A DNA stretch of 64,000 nucleotides from Prevotella sp. UBA3776. GTDB lineage: Bacteria; Bacteroidota; Bacteroidia; Bacteroidales; Bacteroidaceae. The notes beneath the pieces were generated by a model that saw only the letters and a program-made list of their open reading frames with translations, was not told where the DNA came from and ran no database searches. The DNA is taken from assembly GCA_002369515.1 (NCBI GenBank), contig DFFM01000018.1, positions 76,253 through 140,252 of the forward strand, given 5' to 3'. Shown piece after piece: positions 33,223 to 56,065 of this stretch. The first letter of the stretch is position 1. The number at the start of each line of letters is the position of its first letter. The position numbers and the translations under genes are program-made.

Positions 33223-33326
33223 TTGCAGAATTGAAGAAAAGTAGTAATTTTGCATCGTGTTTTTCATGGTATTAGATTATTAAGGTTAATAAAGATTGGT
33301 TGTCGTGAGACAATCAATTTTTTTTT
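33223..33326 (+). ncRNA. Candidate small RNA of about 65 nt
   Basis: TTG (33223-33225), a 19-bp gap and TAATTTTG (33245-33252) form a consensus promoter. A hairpin follows at 33298-33315 (left GGTTGTC, loop GTGA, right GACAATC, one G-U pair) with nine T residues at 33318-33326. The transcript would run from about 33259 to 33324 and has no ORF. It could also be a promoter fossil whose gene was lost. Confidence 0.4.
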
Positions 33327-33509
33327 GCCCTTATTTTTGCTTCTTTTCCCCAACTTTATTCCGGCTCATGCCACACATTTCGGCGCGTTGGTCGCTCTTG
33401 CCGCGCTATCCTCTACATTATTCGGTCTTGGTGGCGGAGAATCCGAAACTTCAGTCGTTTGCTGAGCAGCCTCAAACGCCATGCGGCTCGAGAATCCGTG
33501 CAAATGCAA

Positions 33510-49489: not shown

Positions 49490-49521
49490 TTTGTTTGGTT
49501 CGTTGAAAATGTTTAAATTTG
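49490..49521 (+). promoter_or_regulatory. Promoter of the leucine operon
   Basis: TTTG (49490-49493), a 20-bp gap and TAAATTTG (49514-49521) match the Bacteroidetes consensus and precede the leader peptide by about 25 bp. Confidence 0.6.
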
Positions 49522-49545
49522 CAGCCGATTTACAGAAACAGCATC

Positions 49546-49626
49546 ATGAACAAAAACATTTCTATTCTGCACATTCTCATTTCTCTACGACTGCATAGTG
49601 TGGCCGGAAGTGATGATTTGTGCTGA
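49546..49626 (+). CDS. Leucine operon leader peptide
   Basis: 26 codons, beginning MNKNISILHILISLRL. Five leucine and four isoleucine codons fall within residues 5-25, most of them at 5-16, just where a ribosome would stall when these amino acids are scarce. It lies between a consensus promoter and a terminator 27 bp downstream of its stop, ahead of leuA. It is too short to be found by length-based gene callers. The role as attenuator leader is inferred from composition and position. Confidence 0.75.
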   Translation: MNKNISILHILISLRLHSVAGSDDLC

Positions 49627-49652
49627 CAGTTGTGTATATATATAGTATCATG

Positions 49653-49699
49653 ACAGAGCCTTTCACACTTCCATGTGCGAAAGGCTCTGTTGTTTTTTT
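49653..49699 (+). terminator. Attenuator terminator ahead of leuA
   Basis: ACAGAGCCTTTC (49653-49664) pairs perfectly with GAAAGGCTCTGT (49679-49690), extended by three more pairs past one mismatch, and seven T residues follow (49693-49699). It stands 43 bp before the leuA ATG. CACTTCC in its upper part (49666-49672) is complementary to GGAAGTG in the leader peptide codons (49606-49612), a possible antiterminator pairing. Confidence 0.85.
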
Positions 49700-49741
49700 A
49701 AGACATAAAAGATTGTACAAACAAACATTCAAAAAAGTAAC

Positions 49742-51241
49742 ATGAGTGACAGATTATTCATTTTCGACACAACGCTCCGCGATGGCGAGCAGGTGCCAGG
49801 ATGCCAGCTCAACACCGTGGAGAAGATTCAGGTGGCAAAATCGCTTGAACAGTTGGGCGTAGATGTGATTGAGGCGGGTTTCCCCATTTCCAGCCCGGGA
49901 GATTTCCATTCGGTCATAGAGATTTCAAAGGCCGTCACGTGGCCAACCATTTGCGCACTGACACGTGCTGTAGAGAGAGACATTGATGTGGCGGCAGAGT
50001 CGTTGCAGTATGCCAAGCGCAAGCGCATTCATACGGGCATCGGCACCAGCGACTTGCATATAAAGTATAAGTTCAACGCCACTCGCGAAGAGATTATCGA
50101 ACGGGCTGTGGCTGCCGTGAAATATGCAAAGCGATATGTTGAAGACGTTGAGTTCTATGCCGAGGATGCCGGTCGTACTGACAATGAGTATCTTGCACGT
50201 GTCATCGAGGCTGTCATCAAGGCGGGCGCCACGGTGGTGAACATCCCTGACACTACGGGCTACTGTCTGCCGTCAGAATATGGTGACAAGATAAAATATC
50301 TCATGGAGCATGTCGATGGCATCCACAAAGCCATCATCAGCACCCACTGCCACAACGACCTGGGCATGGCAACAGCCAACACGTTCAGCGGCGTTATGAA
50401 CGGCGCGCGGCAAGTGGAAGTTACGGTCAACGGCATTGGCGAGCGGGCTGGCAACACCTCACTTGAGGAGATAGCCATGATACTGAAGTGCCACAAAGGC
50501 ATTGGCATAGACACCAACATCAACACCACCAAGATTTACCCCATCAGTCGGATGGTGTCGAGTCTGATGAACATGCCCGTGCAGCCAAACAAAGCCATTG
50601 TGGGACGCAACGCTTTTGCCCATTCAAGCGGCATCCATCAGGACGGTGTGCTGAAAAACGTGCAGACCTATGAAATCATTGACCCCAAGGACATCGGACT
50701 GGACGACAACTCCATCGTTCTCACGGCTCGTAGCGGTAGGGCAGCCCTGAAATACAGACTCAGTGTGTTGGGCGTTAATATAGACGACGAGAAGCGTATA
50801 GACAAAATCTACGACAAGTTCCTCAAACTGGCCGACAAGAAAAAGGAAGTGACCGACGTGGATATCTTGGCGCTGGCCGGTGCCGACACTGCCGAAGCAC
50901 ATGCCGTGAAGCTTGACTTCCTGCAAGTGACCACTGGCATGGGTGTGAGGAGCGTGGCCAGCATAGGGCTGGACATCAGCGGACAGAAATTCGAGGCAGC
51001 CTCGACGGGTAACGGCCCCGTGGATGCAGCAGTGAAAGCACTGAAGAAAATCATCCTCAAACAGATGACCATCAAGGAGTTTACCATCCAAGCCATTTCG
51101 AAAGGTTCAGACGACATGGGAAAGGTACACATGCAGGTGGAATACGACGGCAATCTCTATTACGGCTTTGGTGCCAACACCGACATCGTGACAGCCTCAG
51201 TGGAAGCATATATTGACTGTATCAACAAATTCAAGAAATAA
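49742..51241 (+). CDS. leuA: 2-isopropylmalate synthase
   Basis: 499 residues. HMGL-like TIM barrel with [13 protein letters not shown] (about 8-20), [11 protein letters not shown] with metal-binding histidines and GIGERAGN, then the C-terminal LeuA regulatory domain (about 385-499) that binds leucine for feedback inhibition. First step of leucine synthesis from 2-ketoisovalerate. Its stop overlaps the leuC start (TAATG). Confidence 0.97.
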
Positions 51242-52641
51242 TGAACACTCTATTCGACAAAATATGGGATCGCCATGTGGTGCAACAGATTGAAGATGGC
51301 CCCACACAACTCTACATCGATCGGCTCTATTGCCACGAAGTGACCTCGCCGCAGGCTTTCGACGGTATGCGGGCACGAGGACTAAAGTGTTTTAGGCCAG
51401 AACAAATTGTCTGTATGCCAGACCACAACACCCCCACGCACGATCAGGACAAACCCATCGCCGACCCAGTGTCGAAGCGTCAGGTAGATGCGCTTGAACG
51501 CAACGCCAAAGAGTTCGGGTTGAAACATTTCGGCATGATGTCGCCCGACAATGGCATCATCCATGTGGTGGGCCCAGAGAAAGGACTGTCTCTGCCGGGC
51601 ATGACCATCGTCTGTGGCGATTCGCACACTTCTACACATGGAGCCGTGGGGGCAGTTGCTTTCGGGATAGGCACTAGCGAGGTGGAGATGGTGCTGGCCT
51701 CGCAGTGCATCCTGCAACAAAAGCCCAAATCCATGCGCATCAACATTGCAGGAAAACTGCAAGAGGGTGTAACAGCCAAGGATGTGGCTCTATATCTGAT
51801 GGCACAGCTCACCACCAGTGGCGCCACGGGATACTTTGTTGAATATGCCGGCGAGGCGGTGAGGAACCTCTCTATGGAGGGTCGGCTTACACTCTGTAAC
51901 TTGTCCATAGAGATGGGGGCTAGAGGAGGCTTCGTTGCCCCCGACGAAACCACCTTTGAATATCTTCGTGGGCGTGAGTACGCGCCCAAAGGCGAGGAAT
52001 GGGACAAGAATGTTGCCTACTGGCGAACGCTGAAGAGTGACGACGATGCCGTGTTCGACAAGGAACTCTTCTTCGATGCTGCCGACATAGAGCCCCGAAT
52101 CACCTATGGTACCAACCCCGGCATGGGCATTGGAATCAAGTCCTCTGTCCCCTCGTTGCAGAACGTTCCAGAAGAGGCCAAGGCCAGTTTCCTAAAGTCA
52201 CTTGCCTACATGGGGCTCGAACCTGGTGAGCAACTCTTGGGGAAAAGTGTTGACTATGTGTTCCTGGGAGCCTGTACCAACGGGCGAATTGAAGATTTTC
52301 GCGCCTTTGCCTCCATTGCCAAAGGACGCCATAAAGCTTCAGATGTGGTTGCGTGGCTCGTTCCAGGCTCGTGGTCTGTCTGGAAACAGATTAAGGCCGA
52401 AGGGCTCGACGTGGTTCTTGCAGAAGCAGGCTTTGAGATTCGGCAACCTGGTTGTTCAGCATGCTTGGCCATGAACGACGACAAGGTTCCTTCGGGCAAA
52501 CTCTGTGTCTCGACGAGCAACCGTAATTTCGAAGGCCGTCAGGGCCCTGGAGCGCGTACCATATTGGCTTCGCCGCTGGTTGCCGCCGCCGCTGCAGTGA
52601 CGGGAGTGATTACAGATCCACGCGAACTGCTGGCACGGTAA
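51241..52641 (+). CDS. leuC: 3-isopropylmalate dehydratase, large subunit
   Basis: 466 residues of the aconitase family. Motifs: [23 protein letters not shown], the 4Fe-4S ligand regions [12 protein letters not shown] and GCSACLAMN. With LeuD it isomerises 2- to 3-isopropylmalate. Translationally coupled to leuA. Confidence 0.97.
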
Positions 52642-52777: not shown

Positions 52778-53368
52778 ATGAAACAGAAATTCAATGTCAT
52801 TACCAGCACATGTGTGCCGTTGCCACTGGAGAATATAGATACCGACCAGATAATACCTGCCCGCTTTTTGAAAGCAACCGACAAGCAAGGTTTCGGTGAC
52901 AATCTATTTCGTGACTGGCGCTTCGATAAAGAAGGACGCCCCATCAAAGACTTTGTGCTCAACGACCCCACTTATGGCGGAGTGATACTGGTGGCGGGGA
53001 AGAACTTCGGTTCGGGCTCTAGCCGTGAACACGCTGCATGGGCCATTGCCGGTTATGGCTTCCGAGTGGTCATCAGTTCGTTTTTCGCAGACATTCACAA
53101 GAACAACGAACTCAACAATTTCGTGTTGCCAGTAGTGGTTTCTGAGCCTTTCTTGGCTGAACTCTTCGAGAGTATCAAGGCGGCCCCAAAAACTTTGGTC
53201 GAAGTTGATTTGCCCAACCAGAAAGTGACCAATAAAGCAACGGGTCGAATTGAACATTTCGAAATCAATGGCTATAAGAAACACTGTCTGATGAACGGAC
53301 TTGACGACATAGATTTTCTTCTGGCCAACAAAGAAAAAATAGAAGCATGGGAACACCTCAACAAATAA
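52778..53368 (+). CDS. leuD: 3-isopropylmalate dehydratase, small subunit
   Basis: 196 residues. The swivel domain carries [14 protein letters not shown] and [17 protein letters not shown], with the SSR substrate loop. Partner of LeuC. Its 3' end overlaps the next gene by 22 bp. Confidence 0.97.
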
Positions 53369-54927
53369 CCGCCGAGTCCTACCGCCGAGTCCTGCCCTTT
53401 ATAGAGATTATGGACTCCACACTTCGTGATGGCGAGCAGACCAACGGCGTGTCCTTCTTGCCTCACGAGAAACTCGTGATAGCCCGCATGCTGTTGAGTG
53501 ACCTCAACGTGGATCGCATCGAGGTGGCTTCAGCCCGTGTTTCGGAAGGTGAGCGTGAGGCCGTCCGCATGATTTGCCGCTATGCCTCACAAGTAGGACG
53601 GCTCCAAAGCGTAGAGGTTCTGGGGTTCGTTGATGGGACTGCCTCTATAGATTGGATCGCCGATTGTGGAGGGCGTGTAATCAATCTCTTGGCCAAGGGG
53701 TCTTTGAAACACTGTACCCAGCAGCTTGGCAAAACTCCCGACGAACACATTTCTGACATTCTCTTTTCTGTGGGTTATGCCCAGGAACGGGGATTGGCGG
53801 TCAATCTGTATCTTGAGGATTGGTCCAACGGAATGAAAGATTCGCCTCAGTATGTCTATCAGCTCATGGATGCGCTCACTTCCACACCCGTCATGCGATT
53901 CATGCTGCCCGACACACTCGGCATCATGAACCCGCTGCAGGTGATAGAGTTCTTCCGCAAAATGGTGAAACGCTATCCCAACACACATTTTGATTTCCAT
54001 GCCCACAACGACTACGATTTGGCTGTTTCAAATTCACTTGCGGCAGTCCTCAGCGGAGCCAAGGGACTCCATGTCACAGTCAACGGACTGGGTGAGCGAT
54101 GTGGCAATGCACCCATAGCCAGCGTACAGGCCATTCTGAAAGACCAGTTCCATGCAACTACCCATATCAACGAGAGCCAGCTCAATCGAGCCAGCCGCGT
54201 GGTGGAAAGCTACAGTGGCATTGCCGTGGCTGCCAACCAACCCATCGTTGGCGACAATGTGTTCACCCAAGTGGCAGGTGTCCATGCCGACGGCGACAGC
54301 AAAGACAAACTCTACTACAACGATTTGGTGCCCGAGCGTTTCGGGCGTCGCCGTGCCTATGCGTTGGGAAAAACCAGCGGACGCGCCAACATTGCCCGAA
54401 ACCTGAAGGAACTGGGGCTTGAACTTACCCCCGAGCAGACACGCCGTGTGACACGCCGCATCACCGAACTAGGTGACAAAAAGGAAATAGTCACTCAAGA
54501 TGATCTTCCCTATATAGTCAGCGATGTTCTCCATCACGATGTTGCTCATGACAAAGTGAAGCTCATCAGCTACATCGTCACTACTGCCTATGGACTCAAG
54601 CCAGGAGCCAATGTCAAGGTTGAAATCAATGGCAATGCCTACGAGGCGGCAGCAACTGGAGATGGTCAGTATGACGCGTTCGTCAAGGCTCTGCGTTACA
54701 TCTACAGGAAGTATCTCGGACGAACTTTCCCCATTCTGTCCAACTACCAGGTAACCATTCCGCCAGGTGGGCGTACCGATGCGCTAGTGCAGACAGTCAT
54801 TACCTGGGACAATGACGGCCGCACCATTCGCACCCGTGGCCTCGACGCAGACCAGACCGAGGCCGCCATCAAAGCAACCTTCAAAATGCTGAATATTTTT
54901 GAGGAACAGACAATAAACAACACCTAA
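53347..54927 (+). CDS. Second 2-isopropylmalate synthase-like enzyme (possible citramalate synthase)
   Basis: 526 residues. Same layout as Leu[15 protein letters not shown] (about 21-34), [14 protein letters not shown] with metal-binding His, GLGERCGN, and a C-terminal LeuA-type dimerisation domain (about 400-520). Proteins of this kind sit between leuD and leuB in many Bacteroidetes. Divergence from the first copy suggests another acceptor, for example pyruvate (citramalate, for isoleucine). This is an inference; homocitrate-type activity is an alternative. An internal ATG at 53410 lies inside the conserved motif and is not the start. Confidence 0.8.
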
Positions 54928-54997: not shown

Positions 54998-56065
54998 ATG
55001 AATATTAAAATAGCCATTCTCCCGGGCGACGGCATAGGACCCGAAATCATGAAGCAAGGCGTAGCCGTTCTCGATGCCATTGCCAGTAAGTTTAATCATA
55101 AGTTCGAGTACGAAGAAGCTATCTGTGGCGCACACGCCATAGATGAAGTGGGCGACCCTTATCCGCCGCAGACCCATGAGGCATGCATGCGTGCCGATGC
55201 TGTTCTTTTTGCCGCAGTGGGCGACTTGCGCTACGATAACGACCCCACGGCTCCCATTCGTCCAGAGCAGGGACTTTTGGCCATGCGCAAACAGTTGGGA
55301 CTCTTTGCCAATGTTCGCCCCGTTGTCACTTTCCCCTGTCTGCTCCACAAGTCGCCCCTCAAGGATGAGCTCATCAGCGGAGCTGACTTTGTGGTCATTC
55401 GTGAACTCACTGGTGGCATGTACTTCGGTGAGCGTCATCAAGACAACGACCATGCGTTCGATACTGATGTATATACGCGTCCGGAAATTGAGCGCATTTT
55501 GCGCGTTGGTTTTGAGATGGCCATGACGCGCCGCCGCCACCTCACTGTGGTCGATAAGGCCAATATTTTGGCTACCAGTCGCTTGTGGCGACAAATAGCA
55601 CAAGAAATGGAGCAACAGTATCCCGATGTGCAAACAGACTATATGTTCATCGACAATGCTTCCATGCGTGTTCTGACCGAGCCCCGCTTTTTTGATGTCA
55701 TTGTCACCGAGAACACCTTCGGTGATATTCTCACAGACGAGACATCGTGCATCACCGGTTCGATGGGGTTGCAGCCCAGCAGTTCGTTGGGCGAGCATAC
55801 TCCGCTCTTTGAACCCGTTCACGGGTCGTGGCCTCAGGCGGCTGGCAAGAACATTGCAAACCCGTTGGCTCAGATTCTCTCTGCAGCCATGTTGCTCGAG
55901 CATTTTGGCCTTGAAGCCGAGGGCGCACTTGTGCGCGAAGCCGTCACTGCGTCGCTCGATGCCAATGTGCGCACTCCGGAAATTCAAGTGGAAGGCGGTG
56001 ATTGCTATGGAACGCGTGAAGTGGGAGCGTGGATAGTGAATTACATCAACGAAAAACAAAGCTGA
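54998..56065 (+). CDS. leuB: 3-isopropylmalate dehydrogenase
   Basis: 355 residues. [15 protein letters not shown] (about 7-21), the dehydrogenase signature [19 protein letters not shown] and the NAD-binding [15 protein letters not shown]. It oxidises and decarboxylates 3-isopropylmalate to 2-ketoisocaproate. Last gene of the operon. Confidence 0.97.

What the first reader, a model, noticed from the sequence alone, without database searches (positions are those of the whole stretch)
49490..49741. Leader-peptide attenuator controlling the leucine operon in a Bacteroidetes
Seen: consensus promoter, a 26-codon ORF starting MNKNISILHILISLRL with nine Leu/Ile codons, a perfect 12-bp terminator with seven T residues, then leuA. 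GGAAGTG in codons 21-23 can pair with CACTTCC in the upper terminator. Known: ribosome stalling at such codons controls amino acid operons in proteobacteria. Inferred: stalling at Leu/Ile codons frees GGAAGTG, which disturbs the terminator; a ribosome that reaches the stop covers it. The mix of Leu and Ile would fit an operon that also holds a citramalate synthase-like gene.
Basis: partly seen in the sequence, partly recalled or inferred. Interest (0 to 1): 0.7.

Follow-up and report, generated by a model that had tools for sequence, protein, structure and literature searches.

The report
Leucine-isoleucine attenuator before the leu operon
A short RNA leader with a tiny leucine- and isoleucine-rich coding region very probably switches the leucine/isoleucine operon on when these amino acids run short, and in related bacteria its codons differ with the gene content of the operon.

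Summary
Observation confirmed; the reading is largely right. Window 49490-49700 holds a Bacteroidota-type promoter, a 26-codon ORF (4 Ile, 5 Leu), an antiterminator strand GGAAGTG inside it, and a terminator whose upper stem and loop (CACTTCC) pairs with that strand, ahead of leuA-leuC-leuD-cimA-leuB. The element is present in 67 of 80 named leuA loci (mostly Prevotellaceae) and in many other Bacteroidales. The antiterminator pairing covaries (0 of 20,000 permutations, two sets). Outside Prevotellaceae the antiterminator motif is read in two frames, so RNA rather than peptide is kept there. Leader codons follow operon content: Leu-dominated before leuA-only operons or in genomes without cimA, Leu+Ile with cimA in the operon, Val added where ilvDBNC leads (Val weaker when kinship is considered). 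Leaders are rich in the rare Leu codon CTA (35% against 1.7% in leuA). The mechanism is a known kind, and leader-peptide attenuation has been suggested before in Bacteroidota; this branched-chain family was not seen in the papers searched. No expression data exist here.

The parts
49490..49521 (+). promoter: TTTG (49490-49493), 20 nt, TAAATTTG (49514-49521)
   Evidence: sequence; TANNTTTG within 75 nt upstream of the leader ATG in 93 of 97 leaders, shuffled rate 5%. The motif itself is recalled from the literature on Bacteroides promoters.
49546..49626 (+). leader ORF, 26 codons, MNKNISILHILISLRLHSVAGSDDLC, stop TGA at 49624-49626
   Evidence: counterparts in relatives
49588..49606 (+). hairpin 1:2 core, CGACTGC (49588-49594) with GTGGCCG (49600-49606); one A-C mismatch in the window
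   Evidence: searches (this region is paired in the MFE; 63 leaders of the window and named set): 82.8% of cells paired, 5 of 7 pairs with changes on both sides, above all slides
49606..49612 (+). region 2, antiterminator strand GGAAGTG
49666..49672 (+). region 3, CACTTCC, upper stem and loop of the terminator, partner of region 2
49653..49699 (+). intrinsic terminator: 12-bp stem (49653-49664 with 49679-49690) and T tract (49693-49699)
49742..51241 (+). leuA, 2-isopropylmalate synthase
   Evidence: NF002086, TIGR00973 above cut-off
51241..52641 (+). leuC
52778..53368 (+). leuD
53347..54927 (+). cimA-like, citramalate synthase (overlaps leuD by 22 nt)
   Evidence: best NCBIfam hit NF042433 CimA (620 bits, below its cut-off 950); Leptospira CimA structure 3ble E 9.7e-116, next best 2.8e-54
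54998..56065 (+). leuB

Best explanation
A ribosome-mediated transcription attenuator that senses charged tRNA-Leu and tRNA-Ile. RNA polymerase starts shortly after the promoter (about 49528, inferred) and a ribosome starts at the leader ATG, with no Shine-Dalgarno visible by eye. With enough Leu and Ile it runs to the stop codon and covers at least part of region 2 (GGAAGTG), so region 3 is free to form the terminator and transcription stops near 49699. If Leu or Ile is short it stalls on the Ile/Leu run: hairpin 1:2 cannot form, region 2 pairs with region 3 before the terminator's 3' arm is made, the terminator is delayed, and leuACD-cimA-leuB is transcribed. If the leader is not translated, 1:2 forms and termination is the default. 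Both amino acids are sensed because the operon serves both: leuABCD for Leu, and cimA with leuBCD for Ile by the citramalate route. Shown: anatomy, conservation, covariation, codon-operon match, rare-codon use. Inferred: stalling, termination, the response to Leu/Ile, and that the antiterminator wins kinetically.
For: Leader and terminator in 67 of 80 named leuA loci (65 by a detector that asks for Leu/Ile density, L016 and L029 by eye) and at leuA itself in 31 of 54 further Bacteroidales loci (one false call dropped). Pairing 2:3 covaries: own -16.15 against permuted -12.62 (sd 0.42) kcal/mol, n=36, 0 of 20,000; second set of 64 loci -15.16 against -11.81 (sd 0.31), 0 of 20,000, control with the upstream strand reversed -11.00 own against -10.78 other. 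Hairpin 1:2 and terminator exceed shuffles and slides. Probability of region 3 paired with region 2: window 0.05 without ribosome, 0.61 with one stalled at the last Leu/Ile codon, 0.00 with one at the stop; 97 loci 0.38/0.75/0.01. Ile fraction 0-0.22 in 7 leaders of leuA-only operons or cimA-less genomes against 0.25-0.78 (mean 0.51) in 67 leaders of cimA operons; 4 of 4 independent pairs on starred branches agree. CTA is 127 of 368 leader Leu codons against 36 of 2072 in leuA.
Against: The window's terminator hairpin (-27.2) is stronger than its antiterminator duplex (-18.5), so antitermination must be kinetic. 13 of 80 named relatives have no leader ORF. Within the named set the 2:3 pair hardly varies (58-62 of 63), so its covariation rests on wider Bacteroidales, and there the own partner is the single best in only 8 of 36 and 8 of 64 rows (42 of 64 in the top quarter). 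In the 1:2 helix one column pair is unpaired in 43 of 62. L104 has an Ile-poor leader (1 Ile, 5 Leu) although its genome has cimA on another contig. The sign test on the tree has too few pairs for significance (p 0.125). No RNA-seq, reporter or ribosome-profiling data.
Confidence: 0.88

Rival explanations
1. Nascent-peptide arrest: the peptide end conserved in Prevotellaceae (RL..GGSDKVC) senses a ligand in the ribosome tunnel, as in arrest peptides, and Leu/Ile codons are incidental.
For: In 51 of the 60 window-or-named leaders that hold AAGTG it is read in one frame (GGA AGT), so the peptide end is alike there.
Against: The same RNA motif is read in another frame, ending in or near the stop, in L032, L035, L041 and L059, and outside the named set in 6 of 8 (leaders) and 7 of 14 (leaders) that hold it, mostly as AAG TGA. 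Some leaders stop before region 2 (L024, L136). Composition goes with operon content.
Confidence: 0.03
2. A riboswitch, T-box or protein-binding leader: a ligand, tRNA or RNA-binding protein chooses between terminator and antiterminator, and the ORF is not translated.
For: Mutually exclusive helices exist.
Against: No Rfam match at gathering score in the window apart from FopS; the spacer between ORF and terminator is poorly conserved; Ile/Leu-rich ORFs and the CTA bias make sense only with translation.
Confidence: 0.05
3. An ordinary terminator of a small independent transcript (small protein or sRNA), with leuA transcribed by read-through or its own promoter, not regulated by amino acids.
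For: Promoter, short ORF and terminator would also make a small transcript; before four other genes of this genome (ilvD, hisG, two aspartokinases) I saw no such leader.
Against: The terminator covaries with a strand inside or next to the ORF; the element lies in front of ilvD where ilvDBNC precedes leuA.
Confidence: 0.04

Closest known systems
leu operon leader (leuL) of Escherichia coli / Salmonella
   Same: Leader ORF with control Leu codons, alternative helices, terminator before leuA (recalled). The Salmonella leader uses CUA control codons and loses sensitivity when they become CUG (Carter et al. 1986, as described in passages of PMC1183508); the leaders here are also CTA-rich.
   Different: No Rfam match; Ile codons about as frequent as Leu in cimA operons; promoter of the Bacteroidota type, no Shine-Dalgarno seen by eye; gene order leuACD-cimA-leuB.
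Bacteroid-trp RNA (RF01692)
   Same: Listed as a cis-regulatory RNA of Bacteroidetes in the motif table of PMC2864571 (passages only). That it lies before trp genes with a Trp-rich ORF is recalled.
   Different: Other operon; no match in the window's genome, which is only 67% complete.
Leader-peptide attenuators suggested in Flavobacterium psychrophilum
   Same: Text states strong clues for leader-peptide attenuation upstream of amino-acid biosynthesis operons in a Bacteroidota species (PMC9723704, passages).
   Different: The passage names no operon and leuA does not occur in the main text; the supplementary table could not be read here.
Staphylococcus aureus ilv-leu attenuator
   Same: 26-aa Leu-rich leader that also holds three Ile, before a branched-chain operon, supported by mutants (PMC5794164, passages).
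   Different: Firmicutes; combined with CodY; sequences not compared here.

Membership tests
Ribosome-mediated (leader-peptide) transcription attenuator | Short ORF before the operon, rich in codons for the operon's product | tested here: met
Ribosome-mediated (leader-peptide) transcription attenuator | Intrinsic terminator between ORF and first gene | tested here: met
Ribosome-mediated (leader-peptide) transcription attenuator | Antiterminator helix, exclusive with the terminator, whose 5' strand lies in or just after the ORF | tested here: met
Ribosome-mediated (leader-peptide) transcription attenuator | Anti-antiterminator (1:2) hairpin overlapping the control codons | tested here: met
   on 63 leaders of the window and named set; not tested in this way in other Bacteroidales
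Ribosome-mediated (leader-peptide) transcription attenuator | Leader translated; read-through depends on charging of the cognate tRNA | not testable with these tools
   needs RNA 3'-end mapping, reporters or ribosome profiling
Bacteroid-trp RNA (RF01692) | Match to the Rfam covariance model | tested here: not met
   window; own genome, 67% complete
T-box or known riboswitch | Match to an Rfam model | tested here: not met
   gathering scores (only FopS RF04319 at 33257-33327)

The most novel reading that the evidence does not exclude
An order-deep family of branched-chain attenuators in Bacteroidales (perhaps reaching another order of the class) in which one RNA scaffold is kept and the control codons are rewritten whenever the operon gains or loses a pathway: Leu for leuA-only operons or leuACDB in genomes without cimA, Leu+Ile when cimA is in the operon, Val+Ile+Leu when ilvDBNC leads, sometimes as two attenuators in tandem. 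If so, the leader is a readable record of which amino acids the operon is tuned to, and it requires tight transcription-translation coupling at leaders without Shine-Dalgarno sites.
Probability: 0.65. Interest if true: 0.6.

Novelty: new member of a known kind. Interest (0 to 1): 0.5.

Why it matters
Transcription attenuation by leader peptides is textbook in enterics but, as far as the searches here show, little documented in Bacteroidota. A widely conserved leu/ilv attenuator would give a mechanism for branched-chain amino acid control there, a ready test of transcription-translation coupling in a phylum that is said to start translation mostly without Shine-Dalgarno pairing (recalled), and a natural series in which control codons change with gene content. 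It would also let unannotated leader peptides be named, and an operon's sensed amino acids be predicted from sequence.

Tried and rejected
Arrest peptide: disfavoured because the motif of region 2 is read in two frames. My first count of frames (36/34/31) was taken from the start of each predicted duplex, which is not a homologous position; it is withdrawn and replaced. Riboswitch/T-box: no Rfam match. Bacteroid-trp: no match. Covariation of 2:3 inside the named set alone: uninformative, nearly invariant. Val codons against ilv content: raw contrast strong (two or more Val in 17 of 27 leaders against 1 of 67; one or more in 21 of 27 against 14 of 67) but the tree-based pairs test is inconclusive (on average 1.6 the same way, 0.3 opposite, of 3 starred pairs). 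Leaders before other operons of this genome: none seen before ilvD (by eye), hisG or two aspartokinase genes (orientation wrong, redone; one detector call before an aspartokinase judged spurious). Outside Bacteroidales: of 20 loci read, two ilvDBNC-leuA loci (L296, L298) have a matching leader before ilvD; the few other detector calls (L297, L303, L311) were judged spurious, and for many loci the operon start was not reached, so absence is not shown.

Alignment A1 holds 63 of the 66 detected leaders of the window and named set (L024, L070, L071 left out; starts of L026, L033, L052 moved to a later ATG). In the codon test L104 and L275 were set aside as ambiguous (cimA on another contig), L204 and L283 as false calls; L118 fell out because the detector chose another ORF than the Leu-rich one (MAQVRSLSLRLLQDFSR); five further calls with fewer than 4 Ile+Leu fell out (L128, L213, one each of L214 and L234, L265). 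L220, L230, L236 were counted with the cimA operons because cimA lies downstream on the same contig and strand. For L115 and L276 the contig ends about 3-4 kb after leuA, so 'leuA only' is less sure. The Ile threshold of 0.25 was set after seeing the data. In one search, of six named leaders in the second frame, L061 (another copy of the motif) and L062 (copy after the stop) were set aside. The ilv names rest on L140, whose ilvD, ilvB and ilvC score above NCBIfam cut-offs; its ilvN gave no hit at E 1e-60 and is named by position.

Full report
What is there. The stretch 49490-49741 holds a promoter of the Bacteroidota type, a 26-codon ORF (49546-49626, 4 Ile and 5 Leu codons), a strong intrinsic terminator (stem 49653-49664 with 49679-49690, T tract 49693-49699) and then leuA at 49742. 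The RNA is far more structured than shuffles (z -5.0). The operon is leuA-leuC-leuD-cimA-leuB. The fourth gene's closest solved relative is the Leptospira citramalate synthase (3ble, E 9.7e-116; next best 2.8e-54), and its best NCBIfam model is CimA, though below that model's cut-off. So the operon would make Leu (leuABCD) and, through citramalate with leuBCD, Ile; the pathway logic is recalled knowledge.

Conservation. 67 carry leader and terminator: 65 by a detector that asks for a terminator and a Leu/Ile-dense ORF, L016 (cut by the contig start) and L029 (poor T tract) by eye. 13 lack the leader: L005, L007, L022, L037, L040, L042, L044, L049, L051, L055, L065, L079, L082. In 10 of these 13 a TANNTTTG lies 18-60 nt before leuA, as if the leader had been deleted; L079 keeps a terminator-like hairpin. 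On a leuA tree the pattern needs 7 changes. Among 57 genomes with a close LeuA in a draw of 148 Bacteroidales, I read 54 loci other than the window itself, one repeat and one partial gene; 31 have the leader at leuA, and a further one (L122) was picked up by the later detector. Of the rest, 8 have ilvC directly upstream of leuA, and all 8 have such a leader upstream of ilvD when read by eye, 7 of 8 by the detector (L139 missed).

Is it chance? A detector blind to peptide composition called 68 of 95 upstream regions from 97 further genomes (two regions too short) and 13 of 475 dinucleotide shuffles of them.

The switch. Region 2 (GGAAGTG in the window) pairs with region 3 in the terminator. In wider Bacteroidales both sides change together, for example GGGAGTG with CACTCCC (L085), GTGAGAATGG with CCATTCTCAC (L111, L120), TTAGAGTGAG with CTCACTCTAA (L099). 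An alignment-free test, own duplex against duplexes with other species' terminator arms, gave -16.15 against -12.62 (sd 0.42), 0 of 20,000 permutations, for 36 loci, and -15.16 against -11.81 (sd 0.31), 0 of 20,000, for 64 further loci chosen without regard to pairing; the reversed upstream strand shows almost no difference (-11.00 own, -10.78 other). The effect is in the mean: the own partner is the single best in 8 of 36 and 8 of 64 rows, and in the top quarter in 42 of 64. In the window and named set (63 of 66 leaders aligned) region 2 and 3 are nearly invariant, and a hairpin CGACTGC/GYGGNCG just upstream shares region 2's first G; it has changes on both sides at 5 of 7 pairs and exceeds shuffles and slides, although one of its pairs is unpaired in 43 of 62. 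The terminator is supported likewise. Thus helices 1:2, 2:3 and 3:4 of a classical attenuator are present. A partition-function calculation up to the start of the terminator's 3' arm gives, for region 3 paired with region 2: window 0.05 with no ribosome, 0.61 with a ribosome stalled at the last Leu/Ile codon, 0.00 with one at the stop; over 97 loci 0.38, 0.75, 0.01, stalled above none in 85 of 97 and above stop in 97 of 97 (RNA up to 14 nt beyond the A-site codon's first base taken as covered). Once complete, the window's terminator (-27.2) beats the antiterminator (-18.5), so the switch has to work by order of synthesis; this is inferred.

RNA, not peptide, is kept at region 2. Of 66 leaders of the window and named set, 60 hold AAGTG; 51 read it as GGA AGT, but L032, L035, L041 and L059 read it in another frame, ending in or next to the stop codon. 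Outside that set both frames are common: 6 of 8 and 7 of 14 leaders with the motif have the second frame, mostly AAG TGA. The stop codon ends a median 9 nt (10th-90th percentile 0 to 24) after the predicted duplex strand begins (101 leaders), so a ribosome at the stop would sit on or next to it.

Codons follow the operon. With operon content read from the DNA and cimA sought genome-wide in 39 genomes, chiefly where it was missing from the operon, leaders of leuA-only operons or of genomes without cimA have Ile/(Ile+Leu) of 0, 0.22, 0, 0.14, 0, 0.14, 0.14 (n=7), while 67 leaders of cimA operons have 0.25-0.78, mean 0.51 (rank test p 6.7e-6, ignoring kinship). On a LeuA tree of 99 loci, operon class and Ile state each change five times, and in 4 of 4 independent starred pairs they change the same way (sign test p 0.125, too few pairs). 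Two leaders (L136, L137) are Ile-rich with leuCD but no cimA in the operon; cimA is on another contig of those genomes. L104 (1 Ile, 5 Leu; cimA on another contig) is the exception. Leaders before ilv-leu operons carry Val: two or more in 17 of 27, against 1 of 67 for cimA operons; the tree test for Val is inconclusive. Several ilv operons have two such elements in a row: by eye L139, L142, L146, by detector L245, L250, L267. The ilv gene names rest on L140, checked (ilvN by position only).

Control codons. In 97 leaders CTA makes 127 of 368 Leu codons and ATT 343 of 413 Ile codons before region 2, against 36 of 2072 and 915 of 2768 in the leuA genes of the 65 named ones among them. CUA is also the control codon of the Salmonella leu leader, where replacing it lowered sensitivity (passages of PMC1183508). 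Part of the ATT bias may come from pairing in hairpin 1:2.

What is known. The mechanism is the textbook one. Bacteroidota precedents seen here: Bacteroid-trp (RF01692; table in PMC2864571, passages), statements on leader-peptide attenuation in Flavobacterium psychrophilum (PMC9723704, passages) and on short ORFs in long 5' UTRs reminiscent of leader peptides in Bacteroides thetaiotaomicron (PMC7366714, passages). PMC4833913 (passages) cites Lopatovskaya et al. 2010 on attenuation of amino-acid operons in bacteria, which I have not read and which might include Bacteroidetes. In the listings of nine searches I saw no paper on a Bacteroidota leu attenuator. They cover only an open-licence library, so priority is open.

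Verdict. A real, conserved, very probably working Leu/Ile attenuator; a new member of a known kind, made more interesting by the codon re-tuning across relatives. The mended frame count does not change my odds, since the two frames outside the named set still speak against a conserved peptide.

Noticed in passing
window 33257-33327 (+): Match to FopS, a Bacteroidetes family of paralogous sRNAs (RF04319, 75.5 bits).
   Followed up: no
L139, L142, L146, L245, L250, L267, upstream of ilvD: Two leader-peptide attenuators in tandem before ilv-leu operons, with Ile, Leu and mostly Val codons.
   Followed up: partly
L079, upstream of leuA; L024 leader: L079 keeps a terminator-like hairpin without a leader ORF; L024's leader stops before region 2. 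Possible decay stages of the attenuator.
   Followed up: no
L005, L007, L049, L082 and others: Relatives without the leader, with a TANNTTTG shortly before leuA (10 of 13), as if the whole attenuator had been deleted.
   Followed up: partly
L296 and L298 (same class, another order): Leaders MNGKVFLLSIIILLEF and MYPLVILLSFIILIGFTK with matching terminators before ilvDBNC-leuA, so the family may reach beyond Bacteroidales.
   Followed up: partly
window 49588-49590 and relatives: The codon before the last Leu control codon is CGN in 55 of 63 aligned leaders, CGA in 54 of these (from the column counts); CGA is 78 of 132 leader Arg codons against 60 of 1175 in leuA, perhaps because it is part of hairpin 1:2.
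   Followed up: partly
window 53347-53368: leuD and cimA overlap by 22 nt, which suggests translational coupling.
   Followed up: no
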